From Phorcus lineatus (lineage: Eukaryota > Mollusca > Gastropoda > Trochida > Trochidae): a stretch of DNA of 64,000 nucleotides. Where the stretch lies: contig OV121087.1 of the NCBI GenBank assembly GCA_921293015.1, positions 38,798,630 through 38,862,629 on the forward strand, given 5' to 3'. Positions within the stretch are counted from its first letter, which is position 1. Each line of letters starts with the position of its first letter. The notes under the pieces were generated by a model that was not told where the DNA came from, made no database searches, and saw nothing but the letters and a program-made list of their open reading frames with translations. This document shows, in pieces, positions 6,731 to 30,383 of the stretch. A program made the position numbers and the translations under genes.

Positions 6731-7429
6731 ACTAAGGTTTCATATTCAATTAAATCAACTTAGGTTTCATACTCATATAGGCCAACTAAGGTTTCATATT
6801 CAATTAGCCTAAGGTTTCATATTCAAATTAGCCTAAGGTTTCATATTCAAATAAGCAAACTAAGGTTTCATATTCAAATAAGCTAACTAAGGTTTCAAAT
6901 TCAAATAAGGCAATATTTATGTACGCCAACTAAGATTTCATATTCAAATAAGCCAACTAAAGTTTCATATTCAAATAAGTCTAAGGTTTCATATCATTTT
7001 AGCCAACTAAGGTTTCATATTCAAATAAGCTAACTAAGGTTTCAAGTTAAAATAAGGCAATATTTATATAAGCCAACTAAGGTTTCATATTCAAATAAGC
7101 CAACTAAAGTTTCATATTCAAATAAGCCTAAAGTTTCATATCATCTAAGCCAACTAAGGTTTCATATTCAAATAATCCAACTAAGATTTCATATTCAAAT
7201 AAGCTAAAGGTTTCATATTCAAATAGGCCAACTAAGATTTCATATTCAAATAAGCTAACTAAGGTTTCATATTTAAATAAGCCAGTATTCAAATAAGCCA
7301 ACAAGGTTTCATATTCAAATAAGCCAACTAAAGGTTCATATTCAAATAAGCCTAAGGTTTCATATCATCTAAGCCAACTAAGGTTTCATATTCAAATAAG
7401 CCAACCAAGGTTTCATATTCAATTTAGCC
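6731..7429. repeat. Minisatellite, 20-27 bp unit, about 700 bp
   Basis: Roughly 28 units of AACTAAGGTTTCATATTC plus AAATAAGCC, mixed with shorter variants (CTAAGGTTTCATATTC). A variant block containing AAGGCAATATTTAT occurs at 6907 and again at 7054, with the same order of variant units after it. This gives a higher-order period near 147 bp. No coding potential. Confidence 0.9.
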
Positions 7430-9175
7430 AAAGTACAACAAAGCTTAATATAGAATCTCCTTGGTATCATTATCAAACAGACACAAATACCTTTGAAACA
7501 AATAATTCTCCTGACCTTAACAGAAGATAAATCTTGATGAATGGCAATATGATGAAAATATGCTTCTTGTCATCTTGACTGATGCAGGTTTCGAACTGGT
7601 TCAACATGATCAAGAAATGCTTGATCAATACAGTTTATCAATGGAGCTAAGTTGTGTTTTTTCTCATTACCATGGCACCCAATCCTTTTAAAGCCAAAAA
7701 GTCTGAGACATTCACATAATAGGTTCCTGATTTTCAACATTGGTAAAATGTTTTAGTCAGACAAGAGTTGTGAAACATATGTCAGATTGCAAAACCAACC
7801 AAAAAGATTGATAAATGGTTGTTATGTTTTTAAAAGCACTATTTTGACAGTAGCCAAATTTAACATGTTTAAATCTTGTATTGAACTGATTGAGGGATGT
7901 AAGATTGGCATAATCTAATTTGTTTCAAAATTTCAATTCTGTTTTAATTTGACATTAAGCTCAAGCGAAACAACATAATATGCATCAAGGAATTTACTTC
8001 GACAGAATATGTTTGATTGGCATTCATGTTTGTCCCTTTCGAATTTACATGTTTGGAGGCCATATGTTTTGCGCCGTTGACAACTAATCATATCACATAT
8101 TAAAACTTTCCACAATATTGTCATTAAATATCTTTGGAATGGTTCATAAGAACAGATGATGAAATGTTTTCAAAGGGGCAACAGAACAATTTTGGTAAAT
8201 TTTATTTCTTCAAAATTCCCCAAATAAATATTTATTTATGCATCTGGTATTACCTTAACCTCATGACTCAACTTGATTATCTGTAATCATAAACTAAAGT
8301 ATAAAGTATCAAAGTAAAACTGTTGGCGGCCATCATAGTGTGAACGCCTAACAATCATTTAAGGTATCGAAATGGATTCGCATAGATTAACCAAACTTGT
8401 TATGTTTTTGGAGGACTGATTCTTTTGATTAAAAAGATTGCCTTGCAATCTGCAACTAATTTTTTGTGTGTGAGATCATATTTTTTAGCTACTGCTACTT
8501 TAAAATAAATTATGATTAAATTAATTTGACTTCTGAATTATACAATAAGTCATTATAATCATTTGATGACTATGTATGTTATATCTAAATTCAAGCAAAT
8601 ATTTTCATAATTAAAATGAATTATTTTCAATTCATTAGCATCTATGAAAACCATTTTATCATCAGCAAATAGATACCAAAGAATTTGAATAATAATCATT
8701 TCAACTGGTACGCATGTATCTTTGATAGGGTTGAAAATATCTTATCACAGATTTCATCTCAAAAAGAATTTGACATTTAATTTGAGAAATTTATACTTAA
8801 GAAAACCTTATAAAAATCAATCAATAAGGATCTGATGTGTAAAACATGAAAAATCTCTTCATATAAATTTCAACAAATTTCAGAAATACCCTTATCTGAT
8901 GAGAAGTGTGTAGTTGTAGGACTAAGACAAATTAGATTCAACGATAAATGTCTGAATATCATAAATCTTCATTAACTGAAAAAGGAGATGTTAATTCAAT
9001 ATTCCTTGATATCTTGAAATCTTAAAATGCAAATTCATCTTTTTAAGAAATTCTTTGTGTTATTTGATTAATGTAAAATCTTACATTACTTTGTTTCAAA
9101 AAGTAATTTGTGAAATATATTATAAAAATTGTTAAGATCATTTATCTAAATATTACACATCACAGCAAATAACAT
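7430..9175. other. AT-rich presumed intron, no gene seen
   Basis: Nothing recognisable beyond scattered short ORFs; no repeat array and no credible exon. Confidence 0.3.
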
Positions 9176-9900: not shown

Positions 9901-10339
9901 CAATCAATCGCAGAAATGTGATTTCTTCTCCTGCTTGAGGTATTTTGGTTGTTTTTGCACACGGGATATATTAAGTCAATTTCATAACTATGTTTCTTGA
10001 GGCATGAATTAGGATTTTTGTTAAAATAATGATTTCTTAACCCTTCCGTTGCTGAATATTATTTTGACCAGTTTTGCCCCCGTGGCTGAATTTTCCAGCA
10101 CTCGCCTCGCTACGGTAATAACGCAATTAGCCCCTGTGGCTGAATTATTTCGCACCGCGAGTCGCGGCTGTTTTTTCGATAAATGGTGTATTCACATGGC
10201 GGATCACGGATGAAACTGACCGTTCGATACAAAAGTAGCCCGCCAATCCCGTACACAAATGAACGATCTTTATCCGACACTTTGAATGAAATTTTTATCC
10301 TACCTAGAACGGTTTCTATTGCAATATGAAGATTGTCTT

Positions 10340-11600
10340 TATTTAGAGTTACGGAAAATCCTTAAATATAATCGCACAATTAATTTTTTTATATGGAATT
10401 GAAGATACATTATTCCTCTTTACGATGATATATATCTTTTTACAATGCGACCTCTAGTTAGATTTCTACAATTATCTAAAGATTGTCTTTATTTCCGGCT
10501 GAATAAAATCCCTAATACTTAGCGCGCATACATGTATTATATATGGAATTGTAGACAATTTATTCTTCTTTATGATGATAAAAGATTGTTAGAAAATGTC
10601 ATCCTGTTCAAAAGATATACGCCGCGAAAGATGGTTGGGGGTACCCCGAGGATGCTCCGACATAACGGGATTTTTAGCCAGAACTAATTCTCCCTTGGGC
10701 AGTCTGGCATCGGTACGCTAATTAGTACCGTTATACCCCCGGGGCACCCCCGAGGCACCAGCATGCGAGTGCCAGTGTTCTAAGCACCAGCGTTGCTTCC
10801 TGCTGTACCGATCCTCTCGGCGCGTGCAGTCACACGCGGGCGAACATTCCGAGATAATAAAATCAATCATTCTATACGCACGCCGCATCGTTATTTCTTG
10901 CTGCGCATGTACAAATTATACATGGAAATAAAGATAAATCTTTCGTCCTTACGACTGTGAAAAAATAATGAAAAGGTGCCAACTGGTTCAAAAGATATGA
11001 AAAACGAAAGAGTGATACCCTCAACTACTTGAAAACAAATTTTGATAAGCGTTCTATTTGCGACACCAGTCGCATCATCCACCGCATCGTTATTATTGAC
11101 TGCGCATATGCATATTATACATGGAATTAAAAACAATTATATTCCCTTGAAATAGGTGAAAAAAATATAAAAAAGTATAAAATTGTTCGGGAGATATGAA
11201 CCGCGAAAGAGCGACACCCTCAACTACTTGAAAATAGATTTTGACAATCGTTTTATTTGCGACATTTGTCGCAGCACTCGCCGCACCATTTTTATTAATT
11301 GCGCACATGCATATTATACATGGAATTAAAGATCATTCTTTCCGCTTGAGAAAGGTGGAAAAAAATTTAAAAAGTGCCAAATAGTTCGGGAGATATGAAC
11401 CGTTAAAGAGGGGTACCCTCAGACATTTGGGGAAAAAAATTGATAATTGCGACATTTCTCGCATTATTTGCCGCTTCTTTATTATGTGTTGCGCACATAC
11501 ACATTTCATAATGAATCAAAGCCAGTTCTTTTCCCTTTACGATGATGTAAAAAGTATGAAGTTTCGCCACCCGATTCTAAGAAAACAAATTGCGAAAGAT
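10340..11600. repeat. Left-arm tandem repeats of the piggyBac element (~195 bp period)
   Basis: About six diverged units in the same direction. Their TGCGCAYRTR-type cores lie near 10370, 10522, 10902, 11100, 11300 and 11490. Each is followed by a TATACATGGAATTAAAGA-like stretch, a TTTACGATGAT stretch, GATATGAA-CGCGAAAGAG, and a GCGACATTTGTCGCA-like small palindrome. The last four are regularly spaced at about 195 bp; the first two are more diverged. The same unit occurs in the right arm. Short ORFs here do not look like genes. Confidence 0.75.
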
Positions 11601-11694
11601 CGGGGGTAGGTTCGTGATGCGGCTCGTATCGAACGTCCAGTGACAGCTCACATTGACTTTCTCTGTCTCTTTTACGACTTAAAAAAAAGATTAT

Positions 11695-11700
11695 TTTATT
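11695..11700 (-). terminator. Transposase polyadenylation signal AATAAA
   Basis: AATAAA on the minus strand, about 105 bases past the transposase stop codon and inside the transposon. It is the nearest canonical signal in the right orientation, so it is the likely 3' end signal of the transposase mRNA. Confidence 0.45.
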
Positions 11701-11804
11701 GACAATCAGTATTTTATATTACACTTATTCACCTTATTGATGTGAAGAATAAACTTTATAAGGAGAGTAACGCTCATCCACACTTCTGCTTCTTTCTTCT
11801 TTCT

Positions 11805-13799
11805 TCAATCTTCTTGATTATCCCCCTCATTTTCCTTCTCTGACATCAAACTGATATAAGCTTTAGTGCAATCTTGTGACGTGTGATAAATTCTGAAACA
11901 TGGTGCTGCACATAGAGCCACATTACACTCGATACATTCGAAAGAAGATTCTTTGCCTACCCTTTTCTTCTTTCGAACTGGCTGATTTGTTTCTTCGAAT
12001 TCCCTTCGACGAAGTTCTCTATTCGCTTTGGAGCAAACAACACACATGCGTGTTAGGTTTTTCTTCTTTCCAACAGGCTGAATCTTTGATGGAAAGTGAC
12101 GACCATGGAGTCGCAAGACACTATCGTCGCTCGTGCTCGGCCGGCCGCGAGGACGTCTGCGCAGGGAGGGCACTTTTTCTGTTTCGGCGAAGGTGATCAT
12201 ATGCTGCACCAAATCTTTTCTAAATTGACGGCTTGTTTTCAAAGGTTTGTCTTCTGAGAATTCTTTATAGATAATGTAAGAATTCAACATGGCAACGTTC
12301 AACACATGAAACCACACGCGCTTCCACCATTTAAGAGTTTTCATTTTGAACGGGGTGTACGACAGCATCTGGTCGGCCCGATCCACACCTCCCATATATT
12401 TGTTGTATTCGTGCACAATACGTGGTCTCGTATTTGCTTCCCCAGTCACTCGGTTCTTCTTTCCTGTCTCTACAATTTCGGCGTCTTCTACGGTTGACAT
12501 GAGCAACACTGACTTCCTGTCCTCATACCGCAAAACGAGTAGGTCTTGATTGTGATAGATTGTCATATCCCCTTTCTTCTGATTCTTCTGTGCCTTCTTT
12601 AGCTTTTCAGGAATGCCTTTGCGATTTCCTCTCAAAGTTCCCGTCGCACCAGTTCCCATTTCCCACAAGTTTATATACAATGCCACCGAGGAATAGAAAT
12701 TGTCCATGAACACATGATACCCTTTCCCAGCATATTCTTTCACCAAGTCCATGACGAGATCATACGTTTTCCCACCAACAGAAACAGCTTCATTTGTTTT
12801 TCCAGTGTAGAGTTTGAACTTGCAAACATAACCATTTGTTGAGTCGCACAACATGTAGGCCTTTATCCCATACTTCTTCGGCTTGTCGGGATTATATACT
12901 TTGAAACTCAGATTGCCTTTCCAAGGCACCAACCCTTCGTCAACACAAATGTTTTGATGCGGCTTATAAACTCTGGAAAAACGATGCACGATGCGTTGGT
13001 ACAGATAGCCAAGTTTATTCATTGGTGAAAAATGCGGAGTGTTTCGTCCCGGCATTAGGTTGTTATCATTCAAATGTAGATACGTTAGCAGTAGCCAGAA
13101 CCTGTCGCGGGGCATGCACTTGGAAAAGAAGGGCGTCGACGTAACATCACTTGTTGACCAATACTCAGAAAAGTTTCTCTGTACAACCAGAGACATTGCT
13201 ATTGTCATTGCAATGAATACTTTCATTTCTTCGGCATTCGTATCATACCAGTGCCTCAACCGTGAACAGGGTTTCAGAACCTTATCATCGACCTGTTGGT
13301 GGAAGTATCTGTTGGTTTCTGCTGCCAATGATCCATAATCATCTTCATGAAAAAACAGTCCGAAAAAGTCTACAGGTTGCGGGTTATCAGGCAATTCTAT
13401 AAACCGTCCTAATCCCGTTGCGCCAGTAAAATGCAAGTCGACACGTCCACGTTGCCTCGGCCCCTCTTCCCAGCGATCCATAAAATTATCTTGGTCATCA
13501 AAATGTGTGTCCATTTCATTATATTGCTCGTCAAAGCCAATGAACTCTTCCTCTGTGGAAGTACCAGCCGTAGCAGTTTCACCCGTACCAGCTAATATGT
13601 CTCTTGCAATGTTTCTTATTTCTTGATCACTATCAATGTCACTTTCACTATCACTGTCACTGTCACTGTCACTATCACTCTCATCAGTTGATTCCATATC
13701 AGAAGCTTCATCGGCATGGACCTCGTTGATGAAGTCGTCGTCGCTAGACGTTGACGGACCTTCCCAACTCCTGGTTCGCGGCCTCCTGGCCTTAGGCAT
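11805..13799 (-). CDS. piggyBac transposase (DDE_Tnp_1_7), 664 aa, intact
   Basis: The protein cuts the element out at TTAA and inserts it elsewhere; it acts on DNA in the nucleus. Residues 36-58 form an Asp/Ser-rich acidic tract, part of a disordered N terminus. The transposase core runs from about 143 to 512. The three piggyBac catalytic aspartates are visible: Asp287 (ICVDEGLVPWKG), Asp366 (HVFMDNFYSS) and Asp473 (GGVDRADQ, with Asp476 also kept). The conserved WWKR follows at 491-494. A basic stretch (RRRPRGRP, 547-554, and KKK around 578 and 610) could be a nuclear signal. The C-terminal cysteine-rich cross-brace zinc domain is complete: Cys586, Cys589, Cys622, Cys625, Cys630, Cys634, His639, Cys644. 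No frameshift or stop interrupts it. The ATG is the first in frame after a putative 5' UTR splice acceptor. Confidence 0.95.
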   Translation of the reverse strand: MPKARRPRTRSWEGPSTSSDDDFINEVHADEASDMESTDESDSDSDSDSDSESDIDSDQEIRNIARDILAGTGETATAGTSTEEEFIGFDEQYNEMDTHFDDQDNFMDRWEEGPRQRGRVDLHFTGATGLGRFIELPDNPQPVDFFGLFFHEDDYGSLAAETNRYFHQQVDDKVLKPCSRLRHWYDTNAEEMKVFIAMTIAMSLVVQRNFSEYWSTSDVTSTPFFSKCMPRDRFWLLLTYLHLNDNNLMPGRNTPHFSPMNKLGYLYQRIVHRFSRVYKPHQNICVDEGLVPWKGNLSFKVYNPDKPKKYGIKAYMLCDSTNGYVCKFKLYTGKTNEAVSVGGKTYDLVMDLVKEYAGKGYHVFMDNFYSSVALYINLWEMGTGATGTLRGNRKGIPEKLKKAQKNQKKGDMTIYHNQDLLVLRYEDRKSVLLMSTVEDAEIVETGKKNRVTGEANTRPRIVHEYNKYMGGVDRADQMLSYTPFKMKTLKWWKRVWFHVLNVAMLNSYIIYKEFSEDKPLKTSRQFRKDLVQHMITFAETEKVPSLRRRPRGRPSTSDDSVLRLHGRHFPSKIQPVGKKKNLTRMCVVCSKANRELRRREFEETNQPVRKKKRVGKESSFECIECNVALCAAPCFRIYHTSQDCTKAYISLMSEKENEGDNQED

Positions 13800-13812
13800 C
13801 TTTCACATCAAT

Positions 13813-14557
13813 CTGTAAATGATTGAAAATAATTTAGGCACACGCAAGATATAATAACATCAACACATGACCTGTTGTACAGAGAAATTCAATGTGAGCT
13901 TCATGGACATTCAATTGCCACATTTTGTAAGTGTTTGAAACAAATTTGCCGTTGCGCGCCTTTGGCGCCAGCGGTCATCAATAATCCGGACATTTTCTAA
14001 TTGTCCTGGCGAAAGCCGGACATTTTGTTTCACGATTTGCAAAAATAACAAATCAGGACAAATTCTAACATTGCTGGACAATTTCTAACTTTCGGACAAC
14101 TTTTCACAATCCAGCCGAACAAGTTCTAATGTCGCCGGACACTTTCTAACTTTTGGACGACTTTTCACAATCCCGCCGAAGGTGCCGATGGCACCGACGG
14201 CCGCCGACGTTGTATCAACATTATCAACCCTGATGCCGCCTTCTGACTCCTATGCAACGAGCCGGCGAGTCGCGAACAACTGCCTTCTACGTCAGGAAAG
14301 TTCTGATTGTCAGTTGTGGATTACAAAAGTTTTTCAACTTTTGACTTCTCGTCCGAGAATGATAGGTTCCACGGGCCTATCCGTCGGGACGGCCGTAGTC
14401 AACGAGCACCCGGCCCCTTGTCTTTAGTTCACTGGAAGGAACTCATGCCATCCCGACATATATAGCAAATTATTTAAAACCTCGGAATGCTACCAAACTT
14501 TTTTTTCAAAAATGAGTTTCCTCGACCAACAAAAATTTGGCAGAAAAAAACACATAC
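13813..14557 (-). other. Putative 5' UTR intron of the piggyBac transposase
   Basis: On the minus strand a good acceptor (caatcatttacag) lies 13 bases before the transposase ATG. A matching donor (GCCAGCAG|GTATGTG) lies at 14558/14557. Together they would remove 745 bp from the leader and leave the coding exon whole. This is a prediction from splice signals only. Confidence 0.35.
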
Positions 14558-14830
14558 CTGCTGGCGGTGCCCGACGAAAGTCCGCTGAAATTTTTTTTCT
14601 CGAACACGAACATTTTCGTTGGACACATTTTCTCATGACCTGATGGCGGTGCCCGGCGAAAGATCCCCGACATATTGTGTCTCAACCACAAACATTTTCG
14701 TTGGACAACTTTGCCTTGACCTGATGGCGGTTCCCGACGGCATCCCCGACATACTGTGTCTCAACCACAACATTTTCGTTGGACAATTTTCCCATGAACT
14801 GATGGCGGTGCCCGACGCAAAAATCCCCTA
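13940..14830. repeat. Two short-period repeat arrays upstream of the transposase
   Basis: From 13975 to 14175, phrases such as CCGGACATTTTCTAA and GGACAACTTTTCACAATCC recur four or five times. From 14548 to 14830 about four ~80 bp units repeat CTGATGGCGGTGCCCGACG...CATTTTCGTTGGACA. Both lie between the transposase start and the right arm, in the place of its promoter and leader. Small ORFs across the second array are by-products of the repeat. Confidence 0.65.
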
Positions 14831-14969
14831 ACTCAAAAAAGACATCAATAACGCTATGAATGTAAATCCAAAAGTTTTTTTCCTTCAACTTTCATGGTTT
14901 ATAAAACTCTATAATTGAACACTAAAGAAACAGGGTTTCCTTCATAATTTTTTTTACTTATTACATTTA

Positions 14970-15990
14970 TTTATAACATTTTAGCGGCGCTTGTTGAGTC
15001 TTTATTTCTATGAGCGCATAAACAAATTGTATATCAAATTGAGGAGAATTTTCTGCTCTTTACGCTGATACCAAACGTTGTTGAGCGCGCCACTTTGTTA
15101 CAGAAATACGAAATGCGAAACTTGCCAAATTTGCGGCACTTCTTGTGCCTTTATTTTTGTGTGCGCATGTATGATCAATATATTGAAATGAAGAACAACG
15201 TTCCGTCTTTATTTAGACGTAATATTTATCAAAATCCGCCAAGTGGTATAGAAAATATCGAGTGCCAAAGAAAGGTACATGAAAATCGAACTTCAGATCA
15301 CATGAAAAGAACCCTTTGTGCGGCGCTTGCTGCATCGTCGTTTGTTTTAGCGCATGTACATTTTATATATCACTTTGTAGACAATTTATTCCTCTTGATA
15401 ATGATATAAATGGTTTTGAAATGTGTCATTTGTACACGGGGATATGAAGTGCCAAAGTTTCCCTATTTGCGTCACTAACGGAATTGCGAAGTGCGAAAGT
15501 TGTTCTTTTTACGGCACTTGTTGAGTCTTTATTTATTTGCGCGCATAATAATTGATATAGGGAATTAGAGACAATTCATTTGTCTTTATAGTGATGTAAA
15601 ATTCAACAAAATCTTTTTCACGGTGTAAAAGAAATTCATTGTGAAAGAAAGGCACATGAAAATCGCGCTTCAGATCACATGATAAGGAAGTCGGCAAAAT
15701 TACCTTTTTGTGCGGCGCTTGCTGTATCTTTATGAATTGTTGCGCATGTACACATTTTACATGGGATTAAAGACAATCTTTTTCTCTATCTTGTGATATA
15801 AAAAATGTCAAAATATGTTGAGCACATCATGAGAAAATTGGTGTGACAAAACAGTGTAAAACTAAAAATATATAAAAATCACCTTTTTTGCGGCACATGC
15901 GGTATCTTTATTTCACGAGGCGCACATATGTTTTTTACATCGAATTAAAGACATTTCTTTTCTCTTTCAAATGATCCCACCTATATTGAA
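14970..15990. repeat. Right-arm tandem repeats of the piggyBac element (~190 bp period)
   Basis: Six diverged units with cores near 15012, 15162, 15350, 15540, 15741 and 15920. The consensus is roughly TGCGGCGCTTGTTG-TCTTTATTT, then GCGCATGTACA, ATGGAATTAAAGACAAT, and TCTTTA-GATGAT. They match the left-arm units and run in the same direction, so they are direct rather than inverted subterminal repeats. Confidence 0.75.
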
Positions 15991-16471
15991 ATCCGCCCAA
16001 GGGTTCAGAACATAGGGCGTGCGATAGGAAGGCGTGCATAGGGTCAAAATGCACGCGTCTCAGTAAACGATAGCACGCGCGGGTCGGTAAGCTCGTGCGA
16101 GAGGCTAGAAAGTGCCCACAGGCTATTAGCACGTGCGGCGGGGAGTGGGGGAAAATTGAGTGATTTTAACGCTTATTTTCGGTACGATAAACATTATCAA
16201 TATTCTCATAACTTTCGGAGCATGTTCGCGCATTATTTAGACCACCAACGAAACAAAACACGGTAGCTTAGCGGCAGCCGGAACGAAAATACAAGCGTTG
16301 AACTGAGACTACTGCTAGGCAATAAATTTCCGGGACCCGCTACCGAGACCCGCGGTCATAATTAGTTAGCGTGAGAAAAATAGAGTGTGCTACTCGCATC
16401 CCGCTAAGAGGACTTGCGGGCAAAGCTAATTTCATCCCGGAATATTCCGGGACCCGCATCTTAAGGGTTAA

Positions 16472-17150: not shown

Positions 17151-17460
17151 GGTGAGGTGATATTTGGTTTAACGTCGCTTTCAAGATACTTCACTCTTAT
17201 CATGGCTGCTAGTATTATTGCAGGGAGAAAGCCTGCAACACTTATGTGGATATGCATTGCTGTGAAACCTGCAAGCATTGGCTGGAACTAGCGAACCACT
17301 GGTGGTATTGCGCTGTCATTCAGCGTAGCATTGCACCCTAACCTTACTGCATGTAGAACAGCTCTCTACTGCTGACCAAAGTTGTCTAGCCCCAGGCTGG
17401 ATTCAACCACGAACCTCTAAATCCTCAGCTGAACACACTAACCACTGCACTATCCCTACC
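17151..17460 (-). mobile_element. tRNA-derived SINE, near full length
   Basis: On the minus strand the element starts with a tRNA-like head: A box TAGTGCAGTGG (within 17438-17453) and B box region GGTTCGTGGTTGAATCC (17399-17415). It continues through a conserved core and ends with TTGAAAGCGACGTTAAACC and a TCACCTCACC tail. It matches the copy at 38183-38495 along its length. I could not make out a clear target duplication. Confidence 0.8.
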
Positions 17461-20400
17461 AAATTTATCTAGAAATTTATGTGAAGATACACATTCTAAA
17501 CATCATTCAATATTTGCATTTTGCAACAAAACAAATGTCAACAAATTGTAATGTTGGGACATAGTTCATAATGTTTTTAAATTGAGAAATAAAAACATCT
17601 TTAAAACATTTTAACAACTTTAATCTTAAAACATCAAAAATATATAGGATTGTGATGTATGTTTCCTTACAGTTTTAAAAATCTGCAGGATTATATAGGT
17701 TCCTATAAACTAAATTAACTAAGATTTGTTTCCTTATGCGGTAACTTTATTCTGAGATCACAGTCTCTCTATCAAAAGATATTAACAATATATTGCTTTT
17801 TCTTCACCTGAATATACTGCCATTCTTCCAGTTTAGCATCTCTAAATAAAATTGATACTAATATTTTTCATCTTTTCTTCAATAAACTATGCTTATAGTT
17901 TCTTGATAATAAATTTTCAAATGACATGAAAAACTTATAAAAGCATTCCAAAAGAGTTACTTTCTCATTGCACTCCAGATTTACACATATATTAACTTCC
18001 ATCTGACACTCAAAAAATGATAATTGAGAAAGTGAAAGGATATGCCAATAATATTCAATTTAAGAAAGACATAGCACATGATATAGTTTGAACATTTCTT
18101 GTACATAAATTATAAGAAAAATCATAATGCACAAAAGTAAAAGAAAAACTAACCAGAAATCAAAATGGTAGCCTGATGGGAGTAAACAAAACCTCAAATT
18201 CATTTATTATCTCTTTATTGTTGTCTTTATCATTTTCCTAATGCGTCATGGAATATCTCAAGTGAAATAATTCAAAATCTGCTATATCTTTATTGTAATG
18301 GCATTTAATAAACCTTATCTCAAACTGCTTGAGACTAAGAAATGCTTGTATTCAGGTTAGGGATTTAATTGCCGTTTCAATAACATGTAATTAATCATTT
18401 TGTCTAACAATGAAAGTGACAACACAGATCAGAATGTTTTGTAAAATAAAGTCTAAATGTATTAACGCCAAGCTGATGTGAATGACATTAATCGACTTTT
18501 ATCCGGTAGCAATAGCCCTGTCAAAATATAACAATGATTTGATTTGCAGTCATCCTACAAAAACTTGAAGCCTTTACTGTTAGGGGTTTTAGATAATCAT
18601 TCAAAAATTATTAACCAATCTTAACAGTGAAAATGTCAAAACTTCAGCCATGGTGTGGTATGCATTCAAAGTATCACTGCATTAAATTTACAATTTACAC
18701 TGTATCAACTTTTCTTTTTCTTCTATTCAGTCATTAAAAAAATGTTAACCATACTATTTCAACATTATGTCTTAATTCCGGCATTTGAATCTCTCCTTTA
18801 AAATGATATAGCTCACTGCAAATTATTTTCCCCATAGAATTGAAGACATATTCTTTCAAATTCAATGGCAATGTGAACAGTTGTTCTAGAACTCATAATG
18901 AATTCATAATTTCAATATATCACATCCCAGGCTTAAGGACAATCTGCGTCTTTCCAACAACCCAGTTCAGGACAAATTAATTACCTATCAGCCTTTCTAC
19001 ACAATGAAAACGTATTGGGTCACCATTAAACATGAACAAACGTGTATTCAATTTCCTCGACATAATTAAATCATCTATCGTTTAAAGACGGTACATAATT
19101 GATTTTAAACATTGTAACCATCTTTCACAAGGACCTTGACCTTTTACGTAAATCAGCACAGACGCGTATTATCGAGAAATTCAACAAGTTGGTTGGGAAA
19201 GATTATTACTACGTTGGTCAAAAGGTAGTTAATCTGTCCAAATATGGCAGATGGCCGTGAAATGTGATCACATGACCTGCAGACGACAGAAAAAGTTACA
19301 TTGCACCTATGTGACAGACATGGTCAATGTGTACAGAGTCAACGCAATCTTAGCAGTAGGACAGAACAATATGGCCGCCAAGTCGTAGTCATTTCTTGTC
19401 AGTCTTCACAAACAATGTAGATGACGGTTTGGAGTTTGGTTTGGTCTGTTGTCAGTAGGATAAACAAACACAGGAACGTACTCTGGTTAAATCTAAATAT
19501 GTCACTGTTTTTTTATAATTAGGAGATAAATCTTGTGTGTTTGAAAATCGTAGACTGATGGGTCGTAAGTTATTTTGGCTTTTTCTAAAGTCACATGAAA
19601 AATCATGAAAAGATACTTTGTCACTTTTAAAACAGAACCTTACATACATCAAACCATATGCAGAATCTTTGCTTACAAGTTAAACCATCACTGAAGGGTT
19701 CAGTAAATTAGTTCAATATGTCTGACCAACTCTGACGTTATCAAAGAAACATAGAAAATCAATGTACATTACAATGTTAGCAGACCAACTAAGAATGCCA
19801 TACCAAGATGAAAGATCAAGACATGAGAACCCCAAATCCCTTACCAAACAAGAAACCATCTGTTATCAACTACAGAATTCTATCTCTATTGCTATCGTGT
19901 TATATGATAATCGGTAAACATGGTGAAAAATCACTCAATCCAACTCAAATCTGGCACGAAAACCAATTATCTTTTGATTTCATGTCGCTGCTCTTCAAAA
20001 GACGAATTTCGAATAGCTGTTCACACTTAACTGCGAGGTTGGTGTAATGCGAACACCGTGTCTAATAGAGCAATGCAATCGGCTGAGCATGATGGGATAC
20101 ATCATTTATCGTAATTTAAAGACCCAAGCCACCCGATCACCTCCCGTTAGTAAACAAATGGGAGGGGCGGTATTCATCGTTTTTACCGCACAAGGGTGTC
20201 GTGTACCCAGAAACGTGTCTAGGATTAGTTGTGGCACAATATTGCATTTCCTGATAAACTCACTCCTTGAAAATAAGCTTCACACTGTCAGTGCTCTGAC
20301 CGGATTGCGCTTATAAAATCTCAAGATGTCAGCCTTAATTGACTGATGTCCATGAGAAAACATCATTTTACACATGCTTGTCTTCTTAAAAAAATTGAAA

Positions 20401-21790
20401 TTCTAACATGGAAACACTGGCAATCACCTGATGATATCTAAAAAAAAGATGACCTTGCATGTTTTGGCAGCATGGGAAAGGAAAGTGTAATAATACAAGA
20501 CATGCTTTCCAAACAGATATGTGTGAGTTATTAATATAATGATTACATTATCAATTCTGTTTCACAAATTCTTAATTGTTGAGATCATACACAATGTTTT
20601 CCTTTCATCAGGTGTAATCCATCATGAAGTCAATCTCTTTTACACCAGATAGAACCTAAATAATGCTCTATAAGGGTAGTTCAGATGGATTTATACGCCA
20701 TCTTTCAACTTCCATAGATAAAACATTCAGAGGTACACAAAAATACCAGATTGTGCAAATGGCTTTCTAGCCATGATGTTCATTGGCTTGAGTGCAAAGG
20801 TCACCTACATGACCACAATAGAACAGCATTCAGATCAGAAACACAGCAAATTAAGAGTGATAGGTTTGAACTGATTTCAATGAGATTGTGATGAAGTAAG
20901 CATCTACTTCAAAATGTTGTCAAAAAAGGACTTTCTCAAGAAAAATACAACCTTTCTTATGAACATGGACAAATGGAACTATTCTAGAATTGTCTGGACT
21001 TGTCAACTAGGTGTATTGCTATATCACAGACAAATGGTTAGAATAACGGTTTGCGCAAAAGAGTCAAAATGTAGGACTCTCTTCGAGGTTGTAAGAATGT
21101 AAGCTATGAAAAAAAGTTAATCAATCACGTCCAAAATTGGGCACAAATTGGATGTTTCACAGGAAAATCTTCCCCCAACACTTAAAAAATGATTAAGACA
21201 AAGTCGAGGTTAAATATTTGAGGTTGAAAAAGGTCATTAGGAAAACAATGCTGTGGAATTCTTCTGAAAAAATTATGTTTTGTGTTTTTTGTCTGTTAAG
21301 CTAATTAAGGACAAGACAATATACTTAAGATGAAAAAAGTTTTTTCTTTCGAGTGTCTGAATTTATCGGACATGTTTTAGGCTCATAATATTGAGAAATA
21401 ATTTTGGGATTTATAACTTTATAATTCATAAGTAATGTTTTTTTGGGCAAAATAGGATTAATCATAAAAAGGCTTCATTTGTCTGCATTAACATCTCTTC
21501 GCATGACAGATTGTTTTTAACATATAGTATTTTTCTATTTATTCATTATTGTATTCAATTTATACTTGTTTATATATTTTTATTTTTTGTTTTTCTATAA
21601 AACAAAATAGATTAATAGACCCCCATTGCTGTAATCAATATTATCTTTGAATAATAAGTATTTTGTCAAAATGGTTCCATAGCTATCAACATGGTTCTAT
21701 CAGAAATACCACTCATAGTGGATATCTCAATCATTTAAAGCTTCTCATTTTGTTTGTGGTTTTTAGTACCCATGCCAGGCACTGATGCTA
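17461..21790. other. Presumed intron, no gene established
   Basis: Mostly AT-rich. From about 19,100 to 20,330 the sequence is GC- and CpG-richer, with a YY1/ETS-like ATGGCCGCCAAG at 19371 and GGGAGGGGCGG near 20161. It could hold an alternative promoter of the minus-strand gene. The open frames there (66-89 residues) resemble nothing known to me. Confidence 0.3.
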
Positions 21791-21794
21791 ATTG

Positions 21795-22110
21795 CTCATG
21801 GTAAAGCTATTTCTTGTTTACTGTGGCAGTGTAAAGTTCAGTGAGAAATGAATTACTTCTAAATTATTTGGTAGAGTTTCTTCAATTCTTTAACACCAAG
21901 GGAGCTCATAACACTGATAATGGTAAACCTTTTTCTTGCAAACTAGAGCGGTGTAAAGTTAAGTGAGAAATGAATTACTTCTAAACTCTTTGGTAGAATC
22001 ACTTCAATTTTTAGCACCAAGAGCGCTCATAACACTTATAATGGTAAACCTATTTCTCTACAGCAGTGTAGAAGTTAAGTGTGAAACAGATGACTCCTCA
22101 GCTGGCACTG
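21795..22110. repeat. Tandem triplication, ~120 bp unit
   Basis: GTGTAAAGTTAAGTGAGAAATG recurs near 21830, 21950 and 22066 (last copy decayed), each preceded by CATAACACTTATAATGGTAAACC-like sequence and followed, in the first two, by AATTACTTCTAAA. Non-coding. Confidence 0.75.
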
Positions 22111-24526
22111 GTAAGTATTACAACCATTATTCACCTGGTTCTCAGAGATCCGATTCCTGGAGTAGGAGCCAGGCTTAGCGCCTTGATCTCCTGATACCAT
22201 TCCAGAGTGGAGTGCTTGTTGCTTTTATGTCTAGAACTTAATGAAGTAACATATGTTTGTTTGGAGAAGTATTAGCAAGTAGTCAAGACTAAGTGAGGTT
22301 AGAAAACAGGCGATGGTGAAAGAGTTCATGATCTTACATTTATGCAGCTGAAATTGTTTTCAAAATAAACTTTTCTTTGAGTTTATTATTTGAGAGGCTT
22401 TCTTCAGGCTGTGAATGAATAACGGTTAATTCAAATTGGAGGAATTTTGAAAAAAGGGGTTTACATATTAAATAAGTGAATCCCGCTCCAGTTATCTGCA
22501 ATTTATCATGAAAAACACCAAATATCATAATATAACCAATGTTGGAAAACAAAGTACAAACCAGTTTTGATGACAAAAAATGGGGTGAATGCAAGTCTAT
22601 TGTCTTTTATTTAAATGTATAAATTTTATCATTTTATATGCAAATGTTTTAATGTGTCTCGTAGGCCAAATGCTATGTGATATTGTTTTGAAATGTCATG
22701 AAAACGAAAATTAGCATGTGATATAATTTTCTTCTTCTTCTTCTTCTTTTTAAGTGCCATTGTGACAGTGGTTCTAACATTGTGTATTACACTAGTTTAA
22801 TATTGCTTCATGAATGTTACAATGAAGTATCTTAAATATGTGAGTAATAAATCATAAATATTCACAGCACAGAAACCGAACCCAAATTAAATGACAAAAA
22901 GGGACTTGGCAGTGTAGTAATGTCAAACATTTCCGTGTGAGGGTCACACATCACAGAGGAAGCTGACACTGGACACACAGTCAATCTGTGATCACCAACA
23001 TGTCACAGACCTATCAAACATTGTCACTAACACACAACTCCATACAGGGTTTACCTGCAATCCTACCTAATTACAAAGAACACTACTATCAGGAAGTTGG
23101 TGGTGTGTGAAGTTTGTGACACTCAACCTTGATCAGATAAAGTTAATATTTTGTGAGTGGAACTCGACTAATGAAGTACAAAAGTTCATTAAACATCATC
23201 AATGACTACCTCCTTGCAATTTATTAACTCTTTACAAGTTTATGAAGCTATTTTACTTAAAATGAAAAAAAAAAATTTTAACGAAAACACTGTTATTCTT
23301 AATTTACAATCATTTCATTTCAACTTGAAATAAGTATTCATTATTAATAATCCATTATTTCTATCATGGAAACATTACTTAGAATAAGAAAGTCGATGTT
23401 AACAATATCACCCTGTCCATGAAGTGACACATATTTGTACATTGTCAACAAGACTTATTTTAAGATTTTATGAGTGCTTCAAATAGTGCTTAATATTACA
23501 AAATAGTGCTTACAATTTCAAACTCAGGAGAAACTAAAAATGTGAATAATTGGGTTTTAATAACAAAAATGAAAATAGGACTTGAAATAAAATGAAATAA
23601 AAAGAAACAACTTAAGGCAAAATGATTTAAAAAATAACACCCATTTAAGTAACGTGCCTTCACACCACAAAATGAAAAATGCCAAAACCTACTTTGATAA
23701 AATATAGTTCAATGCAGAGCACTTTCATTTTAAGATTAAAAATTCAAAAATTGTTGTAGTTATTCAAAACATGATATGTAAGCTTAATAATTTTTTTAAT
23801 ATTTCAAGAGACATGTCTAAATTGAAACTACATTGAACTTTGCAAACAAAACTACACCAAACGTCAATCTTACCTCCGCTTTTCTCTTAAATCCTAAGAA
23901 AAGAAAATGTATCCCTCCCTATATTATATTACATTCTGTGTTTTCAAATTCTAATAACCATCATAGTATATTAAGAAATCATAAATATTTCCTACACATA
24001 TTACAATCAAAAGCCCTGAATTTCACAATATGAATAAAAGAGTTATCTCCCTTAAAAATCCTACTTTTTAAGTAACATATCTTTTAATGTCACAGAACAA
24101 GTAGGGCATTTAAGAGAGCAACAAATTCAATTGAAAATGAATGCACTGATGCAAAGACTTAAGCAACAGAATGAGGTATTGTTTAGCGCTGCTAGGGCAA
24201 TATTTCAGCCAATAGCGTTTTTTGTCTCTTTATTACATACATTATTGTATACATAGAATAACAAAAATCAACTAACTAAACAACTTTATTTTCTACAAAC
24301 ATGAAATATAAAGAAGTTACACATAAATATACATTCATATTCTAGCTACTAGACTTGAAGTGAGGAATTAACTTGATATAACCAATTTGTCAAATAATCG
24401 TACCTTACACACAATTTCTCTCTTTGCTTGAAGGAAAAATTTTCATCTTGGATATATTCAAAATCTTGTCTACAGCTCTGAATCAAAGATCCTATATTCA
24501 TTTTTGTGAACATGTCACTTTCTTAC
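22111..24526. other. Presumed intron 2 of the PDZ gene, left of exon 2
   Basis: AT-rich, with a (TTC)n microsatellite near 22725-22750. A GC-richer 250 bp patch at 22,880-23,140 is rich in TCACA motifs but has no open frame; it may be a regulatory element. No exon recognised. Confidence 0.3.
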
Positions 24527-24672
24527 CTCCAAACTTTGAGAGTGAGTGTGCGGAATGCACTCTCTATCAACTGCTTCGCTTCTTCTTGGCTTGAACATGC
24601 TACTCTGTTTATACCCAGAATAATATCACCCTCCTCTAGTCGCGAGATGTGTGCCTTGCCTCGCGATTCAAT
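24527..24672 (-). CDS. Second coding exon of the PDZ-domain (Shroom-like) gene
   Basis: The exon follows a minus-strand acceptor (gtgtttcag) and ends at a donor (TGGAG|GTAAGA). It has 146 bases, entering in phase 0 and leaving in phase 2. It encodes 48 full codons: IESRGKAHISRLEEGDIILG, then INRVACSSQEEAKQLIESAF and RTLTLKVW, with a split Arg codon. Joined to the first exon this completes a PDZ fold: beta-C (PLQVCEIE), GKAHISRLEEGD-I-ILGINR, the alpha-2 helix EEAKQLIESAF, and beta-F LTLKV. The helix and last strand resemble Shroom PDZ domains (an EA-LI-F--L-L-V pattern as I remember them), though synaptopodin-2-like remains possible. The intron to exon 1 is 21,334 bp. Later exons, including any ASD domains of a Shroom, are not recognisable in the window and should lie left of position 1. 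Confidence 0.85.
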
Positions 24673-24984
24673 CTGAAACACACAATGATAAGAAAAGTTC
24701 ATAATAGTAAATTAAAACCTATTTAACAAGACAGAAGTAAGTAGAGCTCACATTCACCAACAACGTTTATCATGGAATCATTTGAGCAATGTAACCATAA
24801 AAAAGTCTGAATCTATATGACCAATGGGAATAAAATAAATTTTTATCATAAAATAATGAAGTAAAATAATATCCATACCCACACACATATCCCACCGGTC
24901 CTCCATTATAACAAATATCTCTGTTATGATAAAATAAATATTACTTAATAAACCACTGAGCAGATATTAAAAAAGATATGATGA

Positions 24985-25760
24985 GCAGTTATTTAGTTCT
25001 GCTCAAGAATTAAAGCTATCCCTGTAGAAAGTCCAATTTATACTTGCTTCCGTGGAAACAGACAAAACTACCCTGAAATCTGAAAATATCAAAAAAGGCG
25101 GGAGAGAGAGAGAGAGAGTGAGTTGAGGTTTAACGCCGCTTTCAAGATTATTTCACTTATATCGCGGCTGCTAGTATTATTGCATTGTGGCTATGCATTG
25201 CAGTGAAACCTGCAAGCATCGGCTGGAACTAGCGAACCATGGGTGGTACTGTACTAGAACTCAGTGTAGCATTGCACCCAAACCTGACTGCGTGCAGAAC
25301 AGTTCTCTACTGCAGACAAAGTTACCGAGCCCCTGGCGGGATTCGAACCACGGATCTCTTTATCCGCAAAAAAGGTGGGAAGGTGTATAACATACATACA
25401 CATTTTCAGAAAGATACGACAAATGGTTTTGGAGTTCAGCTCCGAAACCTTTCTGACAGAGTTCAACCTGAAATTGTTTACATGGAAGGAAAACAAATGA
25501 AATTTTTAAAATTTGAAAATATCAAGTGACACCACTTTAGTAGGTGGGTTATGCACATCCAAAGTTTTAAATCTATCCCTGTATAGACTCCTAATTAAAC
25601 ACATTTTCATGGAAACAAAACAAAAATTCAGAATTCTGAAATTTTAATAAGCCAACTCTCCAGAAGGTGGATAATACTCGTACAAAGTTTCAGAAAGATA
25701 TGTGGAACAGTTTCTGAGTTCTGCTGCAAAATGATTATGATGGATGGACAAGCTAAATCC
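24985..25760. repeat. Tandem array split by a SINE
   Basis: Phrases CTATCCCTGTA-A-A-TCC, CATGGAAACA-A-AAAA, TTTCAGAAAGATA-G and GAGTTCTGCT recur as at least three diverged units of roughly 180 bp. One unit is interrupted by the SINE at 25104-25367. Confidence 0.6.
25104..25367 (-). mobile_element. 5'-truncated SINE with target duplication
   Basis: Same family as the 17.2 and 38.2 kb copies, on the minus strand. The tRNA head is cut after the B-box region (GGATTCGAACCACGGATC on the plus strand). The insertion is framed by AAAAAAGGCGGGA (25091-25103) and AAAAAAGGTGGGA (25368-25380), a 13 bp target duplication with one difference. A (GA)n run adjoins its tail end. Confidence 0.85.
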
Positions 25761-26719
25761 ATTATTCCGTACTATAACCTAGCGGTTAGGATAAGCAAGA
25801 CTGTTAATTTTTCCATGAAACCTTAGTATAACTGGCAGTAACATTGTTATATTTGGGATCATACTTTTTTCAATATTATAATTGTTGTACTTTTTCGGGT
25901 TGAGTCATTTGTGAGGTTGAAACCCATACTCTCATACTATGTTGATATATTTTTATAATTCTTAACAATATTTTGATAGTATTGGTTAAGTTCTTCATTT
26001 GTACCAATGAGGTGACGAAATATATTTCAAACACTGCAAGTTTTTATAAGTTGAGACAGAAATACGACAACGCCGTCAAAACCAGTGAATTTCTGTGAAC
26101 TGGTTTAGTCTTTATTTTAAATATTTTACATTTCAAATAACCATAAACCTTTAATTTCTGAATTCCAAATGGCAATGACTCTAATCATTGTCTCAAATTT
26201 CTTAAAAATTATAACCCAACTCCAGACATATTCAACACATACTTTTTTCACGACAATTGCCCATGAAATTAAGATTTCATTTTTCAGCAAGTGCGATATC
26301 ACCTTTCAAGCAACACAAGACAACACATGGGCCAATTTCATGAAGTAGTCAAGTATATCAAGAAGGCCGCTTGTCGGAAAACCGCCCATGGAGACGAACA
26401 ATCCTGTCAATCCCTTTCGAATTACCATACCATCATACATTACTTCCTCTCCATTCAGTCTCATAATCATATTTAATGAAAATCAACTGCCAACACCCTT
26501 CCTCTTGGTAAATGAAGCCTAAAGAATACACGCTCACACAAGTCCGATACAACCCCTCCTTTAATCATCCGATCCTATCAAACATAAAGATTCCCTCAAA
26601 TAAACTCAAGACAATGAAGACGTATGGTTCAGTGTACAATAACTGTGCGGCATTCTTGCAAAATGAGTCTCGCTGCCTAGGCGCACATCATGTATGATGT
26701 GAGAATCATGAAAACACCT

Positions 26720-27300
26720 CAAATAGCTAAGCTCAAGGAAAAATACTTTATGTTAAGCTTGGGCCTTCGGGTACAGCCATAAATCAACTTGACCACTCCT
26801 TGGTTTGGAGAAAATCTTTCCTTCTCAAATAAATTTTGTGATATATGTCTTTTTTTTTCAGAATCTATCCCCTTTTCTGGTTTGAATCTGTGTAGATCTA
26901 ACTTTTTATTATAAAATCTTGACCCTCAGATTTGACACTTCAAACTGCTAGGAACAAAGAAAATATATATGTTTAGCTTAAGTCTTTGAGTACAAGTAGA
27001 AATCTTTCATACGACTCCTCATTTTGCCTAAATCTTTTATTTTTCATATAAATTTTGTGATTTTTTGTCTGTTTGAACCTATGCCCTTTTCTTGTTTGTT
27101 TTTCAAATATGTTATGACTCTAACATTTTAATTTGATATTGTGACCATCAGATTTGACAAGTCATATAGCTAAGAACAAAGACAAGTACTTAATTTGCAT
27201 ATAATAATTCTACATTTTTGCAAGCATTGCCAAAAATCTTTTATTTTCAAATCAAATTCTTAAAATATGTTTTCTTTCCAGAGGCTATCTGTTTTCCCTT
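26720..27300. repeat. Tandem repeat, ~222 bp unit, about 2.5 copies
   Basis: TAGCTAAG-ACAAAG-AAA-TACTT, TTTTATTTTCA-ATAAATTTTGTGAT, and CC-TTTTCTTGTTTG phrases recur in order at about 26720, 26945 and 27165, running into a decayed third unit. The poly-pyrimidine stretches belong to the repeat. Confidence 0.65.
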
Positions 27301-28741
27301 TTATTAATACTCTTTAATTTTGGCATGAAGCTTTAACTTAATCTTCAGTGAATATTGTGAGGTATAATTAATTTTTTAATCTGATATGAAAATAAATTTA
27401 ACATAGCAGATTTTCTTACAATATCTTTTGATTTGATTTGACTTATTTTTTTTAAAGTAAGTAAAAGCAAGGCCATGATTTGCCTAAGATCAAAGAATAT
27501 CTACATTTTATATCTACATTATTGATATTTCAACAATAAAATCGTTAGAATGCTTTGACGTAATAAGTTGAGTTGCTATGTCACAAAGTTGATGATGTAA
27601 AAATGCTATGTCATAATGGAGATATCATAACAATGCCTTGACCTCACTACTCAAGAACCCTTACGACAGTTTCATGGCAGGAGACTCATTTTATTATTGC
27701 AATCTTTGAATAACGACTTTGGATTATCAATGATATCTAACCCTCGTGTCTTCATACATCAAACATATCGATATTAAACACAATGTTGCATTTATCAATT
27801 TTTTTTGACAAATTTAATGAGCGAGATTCTCCAGTTAACCCTCTCTGTGAGGAAGAACACATAAGTTCCCTACAATCAAACTCCAAATTTTCTTACAAGT
27901 CAAATTATCATCAGGGCAATGGTAACCTTGAAGCACTTAAACAACTTTAACCAAGACCATTTCATTGCCAACCAGGCCATGCACAGGTTGCTATTTAAAA
28001 AGACTTAAATTTTCACTTAAGGACTAAAGGACCCCGTCTCCAACAAACAAATAGTTACACACATTTAAAAAGTTATCATCTGGGCAGCGGTTCAGCTTAT
28101 GTTGCTGGAATAATCTTTTGCATAAACAACATTCTTTGCAAGGTCAAAACTTGTAATATTTATACCTTAAACTATTTGTATGCAAAAAATGAAAACAAAT
28201 GAAAAACATCTACTTGCTATGAAAAGAATGCCTTATTTACTTAATGCAATATTTTTGCAATATCATTATCGTTTTTCACTGAAAATGGGACATCTTCAAA
28301 TGATACCTTATATGCTTGAAACATATGTTAGAATAAGGTGAAGATAAAACAGAAGTATAGAAAATATCAAAAAGGTAATAAGATTAACGTCCAAAACAAC
28401 CTTATGCTCATAAATGCAAATATAGTACAAATCAAGCGTGTAGCATTTCTATGACTGGGTTATAAAAGCAACACACATATGCACAATCGTACTGTCTGTT
28501 CCACGCTGTGCAACATGTCCCTATTATCCCCATTTTCTAATAACATGAATGACAAACCAAATCAGAGTGACCCCTCAATGCGGTATTCCATATGGCTCCA
28601 CTTTTGCAATATTTTCAACAAAACACCTGAGCACCTTCTCCCCAAAGGGGTTACTCAAGTTATTTCTTCCCTAGTTAACTCTGTTACAAGTGGAATACCT
28701 TATGAGCTACAGGTCCTGCCTGCATGCAATCAAAGTTAGTG

Positions 28742-30260: not shown

Positions 30261-30383
30261 GTGAAGTGAGGTGAGTTGGTGTTTAACGCCGCTTTCAAGA
30301 TTATTTCACTTATATCGTGGCTGCTAGTATTATTGCAGGGAGAAAGCCCGCAACCCCATTGTGGCTATGCATTGCGGTGAAAC
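30261..30383 (-). mobile_element. Short 5'-truncated SINE with target duplication
   Basis: Only the 3' 123 bp of the same SINE family remains (GGTGTTTAACGCCGCTTTCA through the GCAATGCATAGCCAC segment). It is flanked by ATTTTTCAGGATA (30248-30260) and ATTTTTTAGGATA (30384-30396), so it inserted in truncated form, as happens in target-primed reverse transcription. Confidence 0.85.

What the first reader, a model, noticed from the sequence alone, without database searches (positions are those of the whole stretch)
10037..16471. Complete, unusually long piggyBac transposon with an intact transposase
Both TTAA duplications, matching CCCTT...TGC ends, all catalytic aspartates and the full zinc domain are present. 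Yet the element is 6.4 kb, well above the 2-3 kb I know for autonomous piggyBacs, because of large non-coding arms. Such coherence points to recent mobility.
Basis: partly seen in the sequence, partly recalled or inferred. Interest (0 to 1): 0.7.

Follow-up and report, generated by a model that had tools for sequence, protein, structure and literature searches.

The report
Freshly spread long-armed piggyBac jumping gene
This is an intact, very recently active piggyBac "jumping gene" with hundreds of relatives that share its exact ends in what appears to be a sea-snail genome; it is longer than textbook examples but not record-long, and its main interest is as a natural experiment in how such elements swap their enzyme, their ends and their spacer DNA.

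Summary
Window 10037-16471 is a complete 6,435-bp piggyBac-superfamily transposon: TTAA on both sides, 12-bp imperfect inverted tips (9 of 12), an intact 664-aa transposase with three catalytic aspartates and a piggyBat-like zinc domain. It belongs to a young burst. The exact 30-bp left end occurs 513 times, the exact 33-bp right end 554 times; of the 67 best-matching transposase copies scored (1,736 candidates), 64 have no stop; seven full copies differ pairwise by 4-22 substitutions; empty TTAA sites are visible in a satellite. Chromosome lengths identify the host as the topshell Phorcus lineatus (inferred).

Length alone is not exceptional (published piggyBacs reach 9.5 kb; Daphnia Pokey is similar). 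Less expected: both arms consist of 12 old, same-direction ~180-bp modules. Sister elements share much of these arms (right arm 0-4% different) but have a diverged transposase (dS 0.26) and right end, and transposase and right-end types segregate together. A 2,452-bp non-autonomous partner matches closely only over the terminal 104 bp and about 470 bp. I read this as exchange of arms against a linked transposase/end pair, as inferred for Pokey. Activity was not tested.

The parts
10037..16471 (.). complete piggyBac-superfamily transposon including both TTAA copies (6,435 bp)
10037..10040 (.). left TTAA target-site duplication
   Evidence: TTAA in 29 of 30 left ends read, the window's own included
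16468..16471 (.). right TTAA target-site duplication
   Evidence: TTAA in 30 of 30 right ends read, the window's own included
10041..10052 (+). left 12-bp tip CCCTTCCGTTGC (9 of 12 match the right tip)
16456..16467 (-). right 12-bp tip, inward CCCTTAAGATGC
10037..10140 (+). left cis-end (inferred): 104 bp identical to the 2,452-bp non-autonomous partner; GCTGAA motifs at bp 11, 45 and 99 from the tip
16000..16471 (-). right cis-end zone (inferred), 0-5% different from the non-autonomous partner per 60 bp; only from about 16120 outward does the partner match the window type better than the sister type; GCGGG[AT] at bp 11, 64, 115 and 128 from the tip
16435..16452 (.). 18-bp perfect palindrome TCCCGGAATATTCCGGGA at bp 16-33 from the right tip, inferred binding site of the transposase zinc domain
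   Evidence: layout compared with piggyBat (PMC11707139 section 7)
11805..13799 (-). transposase, 664 aa, intact
12939..12941 (-). codon of catalytic D287 (arithmetic from residue number)
10321..11606 (+). left arm: six ~180-bp modules (10321-10487, 10467-10639, 10871-11021, 11047-11220, 11247-11419, 11435-11606)
14973..16036 (+). right arm: six ~180-bp modules in the same direction (14973-15120, 15118-15279, 15297-15457, 15490-15656, 15688-15855, 15863-16036)
14058..14180 (.). two 61-bp tandem repeats upstream of the transposase
14556..14828 (.). 3.4 copies of an 82-bp tandem repeat upstream of the transposase

Best explanation
An autonomous cut-and-paste piggyBac-superfamily transposon that spread very recently, and may still move, in a topshell genome (inferred Phorcus lineatus, chromosome 7). 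Shown: intact transposase, TTAA duplications, hundreds of dispersed copies of the exact ends, dozens of nearly identical open transposase frames, clean empty sites. Inferred from piggyBat: the transposase core reads GCGGGT at bp 11-16 of the right end, and its zinc domains, as a dimer, grip the palindrome centred at bp 24-25; the enzyme pairs this with the motif-poorer left end (GCTGAA at bp 11, 45, 99), excises the element seamlessly and inserts it at TTAA. Inferred from the mosaic: transposase and right end evolve as one functional unit, while stretches of the module-filled arms between them are exchanged among sister elements by recombination or gene conversion. A similar exchange probably put the window-type ends on a 2,452-bp non-autonomous element with a different interior, which the window-type transposase probably mobilises. 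The arm modules are probably not needed as a particular sequence for mobility; a regulatory role is possible but unproven.
For: Transposase family and residues. Ends, TSDs, copy counts. Intact copies: 64 of the 67 scored (of 1,736 first-look candidates, the best scored first) without stop at 99-100% identity; 5 of 6 fetched full copies with an open 664-aa frame, and 4-22 substitutions per 6,436 bp in pairs of the seven copies. Empty sites: five uninterrupted units of a ~409-bp satellite with one TTAA at the insertion point of copy L071, 0-2 mismatches to the joined flanks. Recency: arms differ on average 0.40-0.41% pairwise, mostly by singletons (69 of 79 and 82 of 91 variable sites). Mosaic: window versus S663/S665 differs 4-12% per 250 bp across the CDS (dN 0.04, dS 0.26), but 0-1.6% (S663) and 0.6-4.0% (S665; two windows without letters) between 13787 and 16037, and 8-24% in the last ~435 bp. 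Linkage on contigs C1 and C2: the 11 window-type transposases have the exact window-type left end in 10, right end in 10, sister-type right end in 0; the 13 transposases of the list have 0, 0 and 10 (Fisher p 5.6e-6 for 10 of 11 against 0 of 13). Ends shared with the partner: 104 bp left without a difference, ~470 bp right at 0-5%, then 10-26% (one partner copy, L075). Sisters keep GCGGGT and the palindrome arms CCCGG/CCGGG while its middle changes.
Against: No excision, expression or polymorphism was measured. The copies read were chosen by similarity to the window, which biases age downward and intactness upward. The mosaic rests on one full copy of each sister (L008, L005) plus pieces of L003, L004 and L007. 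L006, which has a stop in its frame, does not show near-identical arms (about 92-94%). Against S663 the left arm differs by 0-7.5%, overlapping the CDS range, so only its right arm and the stretch beside the stop codon are near-identical. The sister-type label of 12 of the 13 transposases comes from the list, not from sequence read. Palindromes of 14 bp or more occur 18 times in the rest of the window, so the terminal one is notable by place and length, not by existing. Module columns are only weakly protected (p 0.0017, 0.07, 0.04, 0.21 in four comparisons, uncorrected).
Confidence: 0.85

Rival explanations
1. A dead or dying family: the burst is over (silenced by the host), and what we see are recent but no longer mobile copies.
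For: No expression data; the ~2.45-kb class outnumbers full copies (47 against 18 of 74 paired ends on C1, C2 and part of C5), a state in which non-autonomous copies may titrate transposase; four partner copies differ pairwise at 9-23 sites per ~2,452 bp.
Against: 64 of 67 scored frames have no stop (best-scoring copies only); two of six fetched copies differ from the window by only 4 and 5 substitutions in 6.4 kb; transposase dN/dS between window and sisters is about 0.15.
Confidence: 0.3
2. The near-identity of arm stretches between sisters is due to strong selection on arm modules, not to exchange.
For: Conserved columns across modules; slight depletion of substitutions at those columns.
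Against: Stretches outside modules are as conserved, e.g. 11607-11786 and 14537-14972 lie in windows with 0.0% against S663; each module's best match within its own element is only 59-78%, so modules tolerate change; silent sites of the CDS differ by about 26%. S663 and S665 differ more in the left arm (1.6-9.3%) than in the CDS (0.4-1.6%), the reverse pattern, which fits a mosaic.
Confidence: 0.12
3. Assembly artefact: copies collapsed or propagated during assembly.
For: Repeats are error-prone in assemblies.
Against: The flanks of the 60 ends read differ, except for two copies inserted in the same satellite; private substitutions occur in most copies; the public assembly that matches by size is PacBio HiFi with QV 56.5 (PMC10444997, passages).
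Confidence: 0.02
4. The 2,452-bp partner is a plain deletion derivative of the window element.
For: Same ends; no transposase.
Against: Only 282 bp (82%) and about 831 bp (92%) align; 7 of its 9 modules found are at best 60-69% like any window module.
Confidence: 0.05

Closest known systems
piggyBat (Myotis lucifugus)
   Same: Best solved relative (E 1.7e-71 alone; 1.2e-93 as a profile); GCGGG motif at bp 11-16 of one end followed by a palindrome; repeated G motifs on one end, weaker motifs on the other; zinc-domain ligands align as far as H639.
   Different: G motifs at 11, 64, 115 and 128 instead of 11, 55 and 99 (PMC11707139 section 7); 6.4 kb with modular arms. Percent identity to piggyBat was not computed.
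Pokey A/B and mPok (Daphnia)
   Same: Long piggyBac (5.1 kb on average, up to 9.8 kb) with ~200-bp repeats in a non-coding arm; two lineages with diverged transposase and different terminal repeats but shared arm repeats; non-autonomous partners matching each lineage's ends (PMC3849761, passages).
   Different: Pokey repeats come from the rDNA spacer, lie in the 5' arm and evolve in concert; here modules lie in both arms, are diverged from each other and stay colinear. Relation to rDNA could not be tested (search unanswered). Pokey has a 28S rDNA target site; the copies read here are dispersed.
Coral CMITEs / AmiPB1
   Same: piggyBac-dependent non-autonomous elements whose interior and ends seem to have different histories (PMC2872659, abstract and Discussion).
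   Different: CMITE interiors are conserved and ends vary; here the partner's ends are shared and the interior differs.
piggyBac (Trichoplusia ni)
   Same: TTAA target, CCCT tip (recalled), related transposase (E 5.3e-52 with 6x67).
   Different: About 2.47 kb; its zinc domain did not align; end motifs differ.

Membership tests
piggyBac superfamily | DDE_Tnp_1_7 transposase domain over most of its length | tested here: met
   PF13843 positions 2-349 of 349, 310.5 bits, cut-off 22.4
piggyBac superfamily | three catalytic aspartates | tested here: met
   D287, D366, D473 aligned to piggyBat D237, D309, D413; invariant in the 8 sequences of A1
piggyBac superfamily | TTAA target-site duplication | tested here: met
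   29 of 30 left and 30 of 30 right ends read, the window's own included; five empty sites with a single TTAA
piggyBac superfamily | short inverted tips beginning CCCTT or similar | tested here: met
   CCCTTCCGTTGC / CCCTTAAGATGC, 9 of 12; CCCTT given as the most conserved tip in PMC10813416 section 11
piggyBac superfamily | C-terminal cysteine-rich domain | tested here: met
   eight Cys/His, aligned to piggyBat through H639; Pfam zf-Tnp_2 below cut-off
piggyBac superfamily | seamless excision | not testable with these tools
   needs a cell assay or population data
piggyBat-type ends | GCGGG(A) at bp 11-16 followed by a palindrome on one end | tested here: met
   GCGGGT at 11, 18-bp palindrome at bp 16-33; five GCGGG/CCCGC in the last 150 bp, reached in 0 of 1,000 shuffles
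piggyBat-type ends | regular 44-bp repeats of motif plus palindrome | tested here: not met
   motifs at 64, 115, 128; by eye only the one at 128 is followed by a half-palindrome
Pokey | insertion into the 28S rDNA site | tested here: inconclusive
   60 ends read lie in differing flanks; flanks were not searched for rRNA, and rDNA insertions elsewhere are not excluded
Pokey | arm repeats derived from the rDNA spacer | not tested
   search for rDNA in the host genome did not complete
Pokey | placement in the Pokey clade of transposases | not tested
   no Pokey sequence was fetched

The most novel reading that the evidence does not exclude
This genome catches the birth of new transposon specificities: transposase and right end are exchanged as a linked pair between elements that otherwise share modular arms, and a non-autonomous parasite has followed by acquiring only the ~104-bp and ~470-bp ends of the currently successful transposase. 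The ~180-bp modules, kept in order and not homogenised, would be a functional scaffold (for example chromatin or transcription) rather than filler.
Probability: 0.3. Interest if true: 0.65.

Novelty: new member of a known kind. Interest (0 to 1): 0.4.

Why it matters
A very young piggyBac burst with hundreds of copies of the same ends, two co-resident transposase/right-end types and an end-matched parasite would make the question of how transposases and their ends co-diverge directly testable by cross-mobilisation. It also suggests the minimal cis-ends (about 104 bp and at most about 470 bp) from evolution alone, and offers a possible active piggyBac from a mollusc. For annotation, it shows that a 6.4-kb piggyBac can be mostly modular arm.

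Tried and rejected
Rejected: (1) that the 2,452-bp class is a plain deletion of the window element. (2) That the arm modules are palindromic protein sites or RNA hairpins: self-complementarity mean z 0.64 over the 12 modules, RNAalifold energy 0.0. (3) That the modules occur elsewhere in the window: no match at E up to 1 with the module profile. (4) That the modules are transposase sites of the GCGGG type: seven scattered GCGGG/CCCGC outside the first and last 150 bp of the element. (5) Rfam on the whole window: no match at gathering score. (6) Four other window ORFs against Pfam at E up to 0.01: no match.

Could not be done: structure prediction (14 calls answered 'busy': 60, 63, 67, 70, 72, 77, 81, 84, 92, 95, 101, 105, 109, 113); rDNA search in the host (no usable answer; 54, 61, 68, 74, 94, 103, 108, 112 unanswered); count of the sister-type left end (80, 107, 111 unanswered). 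Prior-art searches: seen as capped listings apart from the papers named. In one search (10 of 1,062 papers listed) no listed paper held both 'Phorcus' and 'piggyBac'. Subscription papers and Repbase are not covered, so I claim no more than that I did not find this element in print. Host searches: (listings), then PMC10444997 (passages).
Full report
What is there. The window lies on contig C12 of a 957.8-Mb assembly. Its coordinates 10037-16471 hold TTAA-CCCTTCCGTTGC ... GCATCTTAAGGG-TTAA, a 664-aa transposase in one open frame on the minus strand at 13799..11805, and two non-coding arms. The transposase matches PF13843 over 348 of 349 positions. It is closest among solved structures to piggyBat (E 1.7e-71 alone; 1.2e-93 as a profile) and then to T. 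ni piggyBac. The three catalytic aspartates are D287, D366 and D473. The C-terminal Cys/His pattern aligns with piggyBat's as far as H639. The N-terminus holds a run of Ser-Asp repeats.

The host. The mitochondrial contig C74 gave a COX1 in an open frame under the invertebrate mitochondrial code; that the neighbouring frame is ND2 is my reading. The lengths of the 14 contigs printed agree to within 0.01 Mb with the chromosome table of the Phorcus lineatus assembly xgPhoLine1.1 (79.43, 69.66, 65.39, 62.25, 59.84, 58.7, 52.04 ... Mb; span 957.8 Mb; PMC10444997, passages). That paper gives 78 scaffolds against 74 contigs here, so the identification is an inference, though a strong one. The window would then be on chromosome 7.

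A young burst. Exact 30-bp left ends number 513 and exact 33-bp right ends 554, reversed controls 0. Thirty left and thirty right ends were read, each set including the window's own copy (L012, L047). The junction falls at the same base in each; TTAA is present at 29 of 30 and 30 of 30. Flanks are unrelated except for two copies in one satellite. The protein search scored 67 of 1,736 candidates, best first, at 99-100% identity; 64 have no stop. Six further full copies were fetched: among the seven, pairwise differences run from 4 to 22 substitutions in 6,436 bp, and five of the six keep the 664-aa frame; L074 has a 2-bp insertion. In 30 left and 28 right arms (two partner-type right ends dropped) the mean pairwise difference is 0.41% and 0.40%, and the mean distance to the majority 0.22% and 0.20%. 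These copies were picked by similarity to the window, so the figures are lower bounds for the family. At a neutral rate of 2-4e-9 per site and year (assumed, not tested) 0.2% is roughly half a million to a million years.

Empty sites. Copy L071 sits in a satellite with a ~409-bp period (offsets). Five uninterrupted units in the fetched flanks show the same site with a single TTAA and 0-2 mismatches to the joined flanks. This is the direct signature of insertion with TTAA duplication.

The ends. Read inward, the right end is CCCTTAAGAT-GCGGGT-CCCGGAATATTCCGGG: GCGGGT at bp 11-16 and an 18-bp perfect palindrome at bp 16-33. In piggyBat the left end has GCGGGA at bp 11-16 and an imperfect palindrome three bp downstream; the core domain reads the first and two zinc domains the second (PMC11707139, section 7 and passages). 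Five GCGGG/CCCGC occur in the last 150 bp against 0.65 expected, and none of 1,000 shuffles reach five. The terminal palindrome is the only one of 14 bp or more in the element, but 18 such palindromes occur in the rest of the window. In the two sisters GCGGGT and the palindrome arms are kept while the middle changes from AATATT to GCCTGT. The left end has GCTGAA at bp 11, 45 and 99 instead. I infer an asymmetric, piggyBat-like synapsis; it was not tested.

The arms. A profile built from the repeats found recovers 12 modules in the element, six in each arm, all on the + strand, and none elsewhere in the window. The best match of each module within the element is 59-78%, but the module at the same place in sister S663 is 94-100% alike and in S665, where present, 86-99%. 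The array is therefore old and colinear and not homogenised, unlike the rDNA-derived repeats of Pokey (PMC3849761, passages). S665 lacks two of the right-arm modules.

Sisters and mosaic. One search scored 116 of 1,060 piggyBac candidates; the window copy was not among them. Of the eight loci read, L003-L008 are sisters at about 92% protein identity (L006 with a stop in the frame), and L001 and L002 are a second family at about 34%. Against S663 (L005) and S665 (L008) the window differs by 4-12% per 250 bp in the CDS (dN 0.04, dS 0.26), by 0-1.6% (S663) or 0.6-4.0% (S665) from 13787 to 16037, by 0-7.5% (S663) or 0.8-3.6% (S665) in the left arm, and by 8-24% in the last 435 bp. The two sisters are alike in the CDS (0.4-1.6%) and right end (1.2-2.2%) but differ by 1.6-9.3% in the left arm. 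The divergent block against both sisters runs from 11932 to 13649 (S663) or 13668 (S665), inside the CDS at both borders. So transposase and right end diverged together, while part of the arms did not. Pieces of L003, L004 and L007 agree (right-arm pieces 97.5-99%); L006 does not (about 92-94%). On C1 and C2, the two contigs wholly covered by the printed lists, the 11 window-type transposases have window-type left ends in 10, right ends in 10 and sister-type right ends in none; the 13 transposases of the list have 0, 0 and 10. Of these 13 only one (L008) was read as sequence. Sister-type right ends number 388 in the genome, reversed control 0.

The non-autonomous partner. Of 88 left ends on C1, C2 and part of C5, 74 pair with a right end on the same strand within 20 kb: 47 span 2,395-2,458 bp, 18 span 6,296-6,439 bp, 9 other lengths. 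The four ~2,452-bp ones read show no match to the transposase region. One of them (L075) matches the window without a difference for 104 bp on the left and at 0-5% per 60 bp for about 470 bp on the right, then at 10-26%. Between about 16000 and 16120 it is as close to S665 as to the window, so the type-specific right end is the last ~350 bp. The simplest reading is that an older modular element acquired the ends that the current transposase recognises.

What it works like and what it is. By every defining feature tested it is a member of the piggyBac superfamily; by its ends it is piggyBat-like, though without piggyBat's regular spacing; by its natural history (long repeated arm, two transposase/end types with shared arms, end-matched partner) it parallels Pokey. 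Length is within the published range. It is a new member of a known kind, unusually clean and young. The most novel part, linked exchange of transposase and ends against shared arms, rests on few full-length sisters and needs the genome-wide breakpoint map named under next steps.

Noticed in passing
L001, L002 (G000:C32:9831581, G000:C15:4226321): A second piggyBac family, about 34% identical to the window transposase, with open frames of 568 and 572 aa; L001 has a zf-Tnp_2 match over the cut-off.
   Followed up: partly
L083 / L005 (G000:C11, around 23775864): The one S663 copy read lacks the first ~142 bp of the window type; in their place stands a GCGATGCGAAGTAGCGAAG-like repeat, so this class, or this copy, may have lost or replaced its left end.
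   Followed up: partly
L023, L025, L041, L045 (G000:C13): A ~409-bp satellite hosts two insertions and is joined to a fragment about 88-90% like the element's right arm that stops 140 bp short of its end.
   Followed up: partly
L015 (G000:C13:33182979): One otherwise normal copy has CTAA instead of TTAA on the left.
   Followed up: no
window 13626-13679: Ser-Asp repeat run in the transposase N-terminus (residues 41-58), acidic, possible casein-kinase-type phosphorylation sites (recalled from piggyBac and piggyBat work).
   Followed up: no
window 41143-45019: Blocks of 75-244 bp repeated at 88-97% identity about 1.0 and 2.4-2.9 kb apart: an unrelated dispersed or locally duplicated repeat.
   Followed up: no
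window 6731-7433 and 58660-58994: Minisatellites with units of about 27 bp and 19 bp.
   Followed up: no
window 17187-30383: Stretches of 67-135 bp near 17.2, 25.2 and 30.3 kb match each other in pairs at 85-96% identity, probably one interspersed repeat.
   Followed up: no
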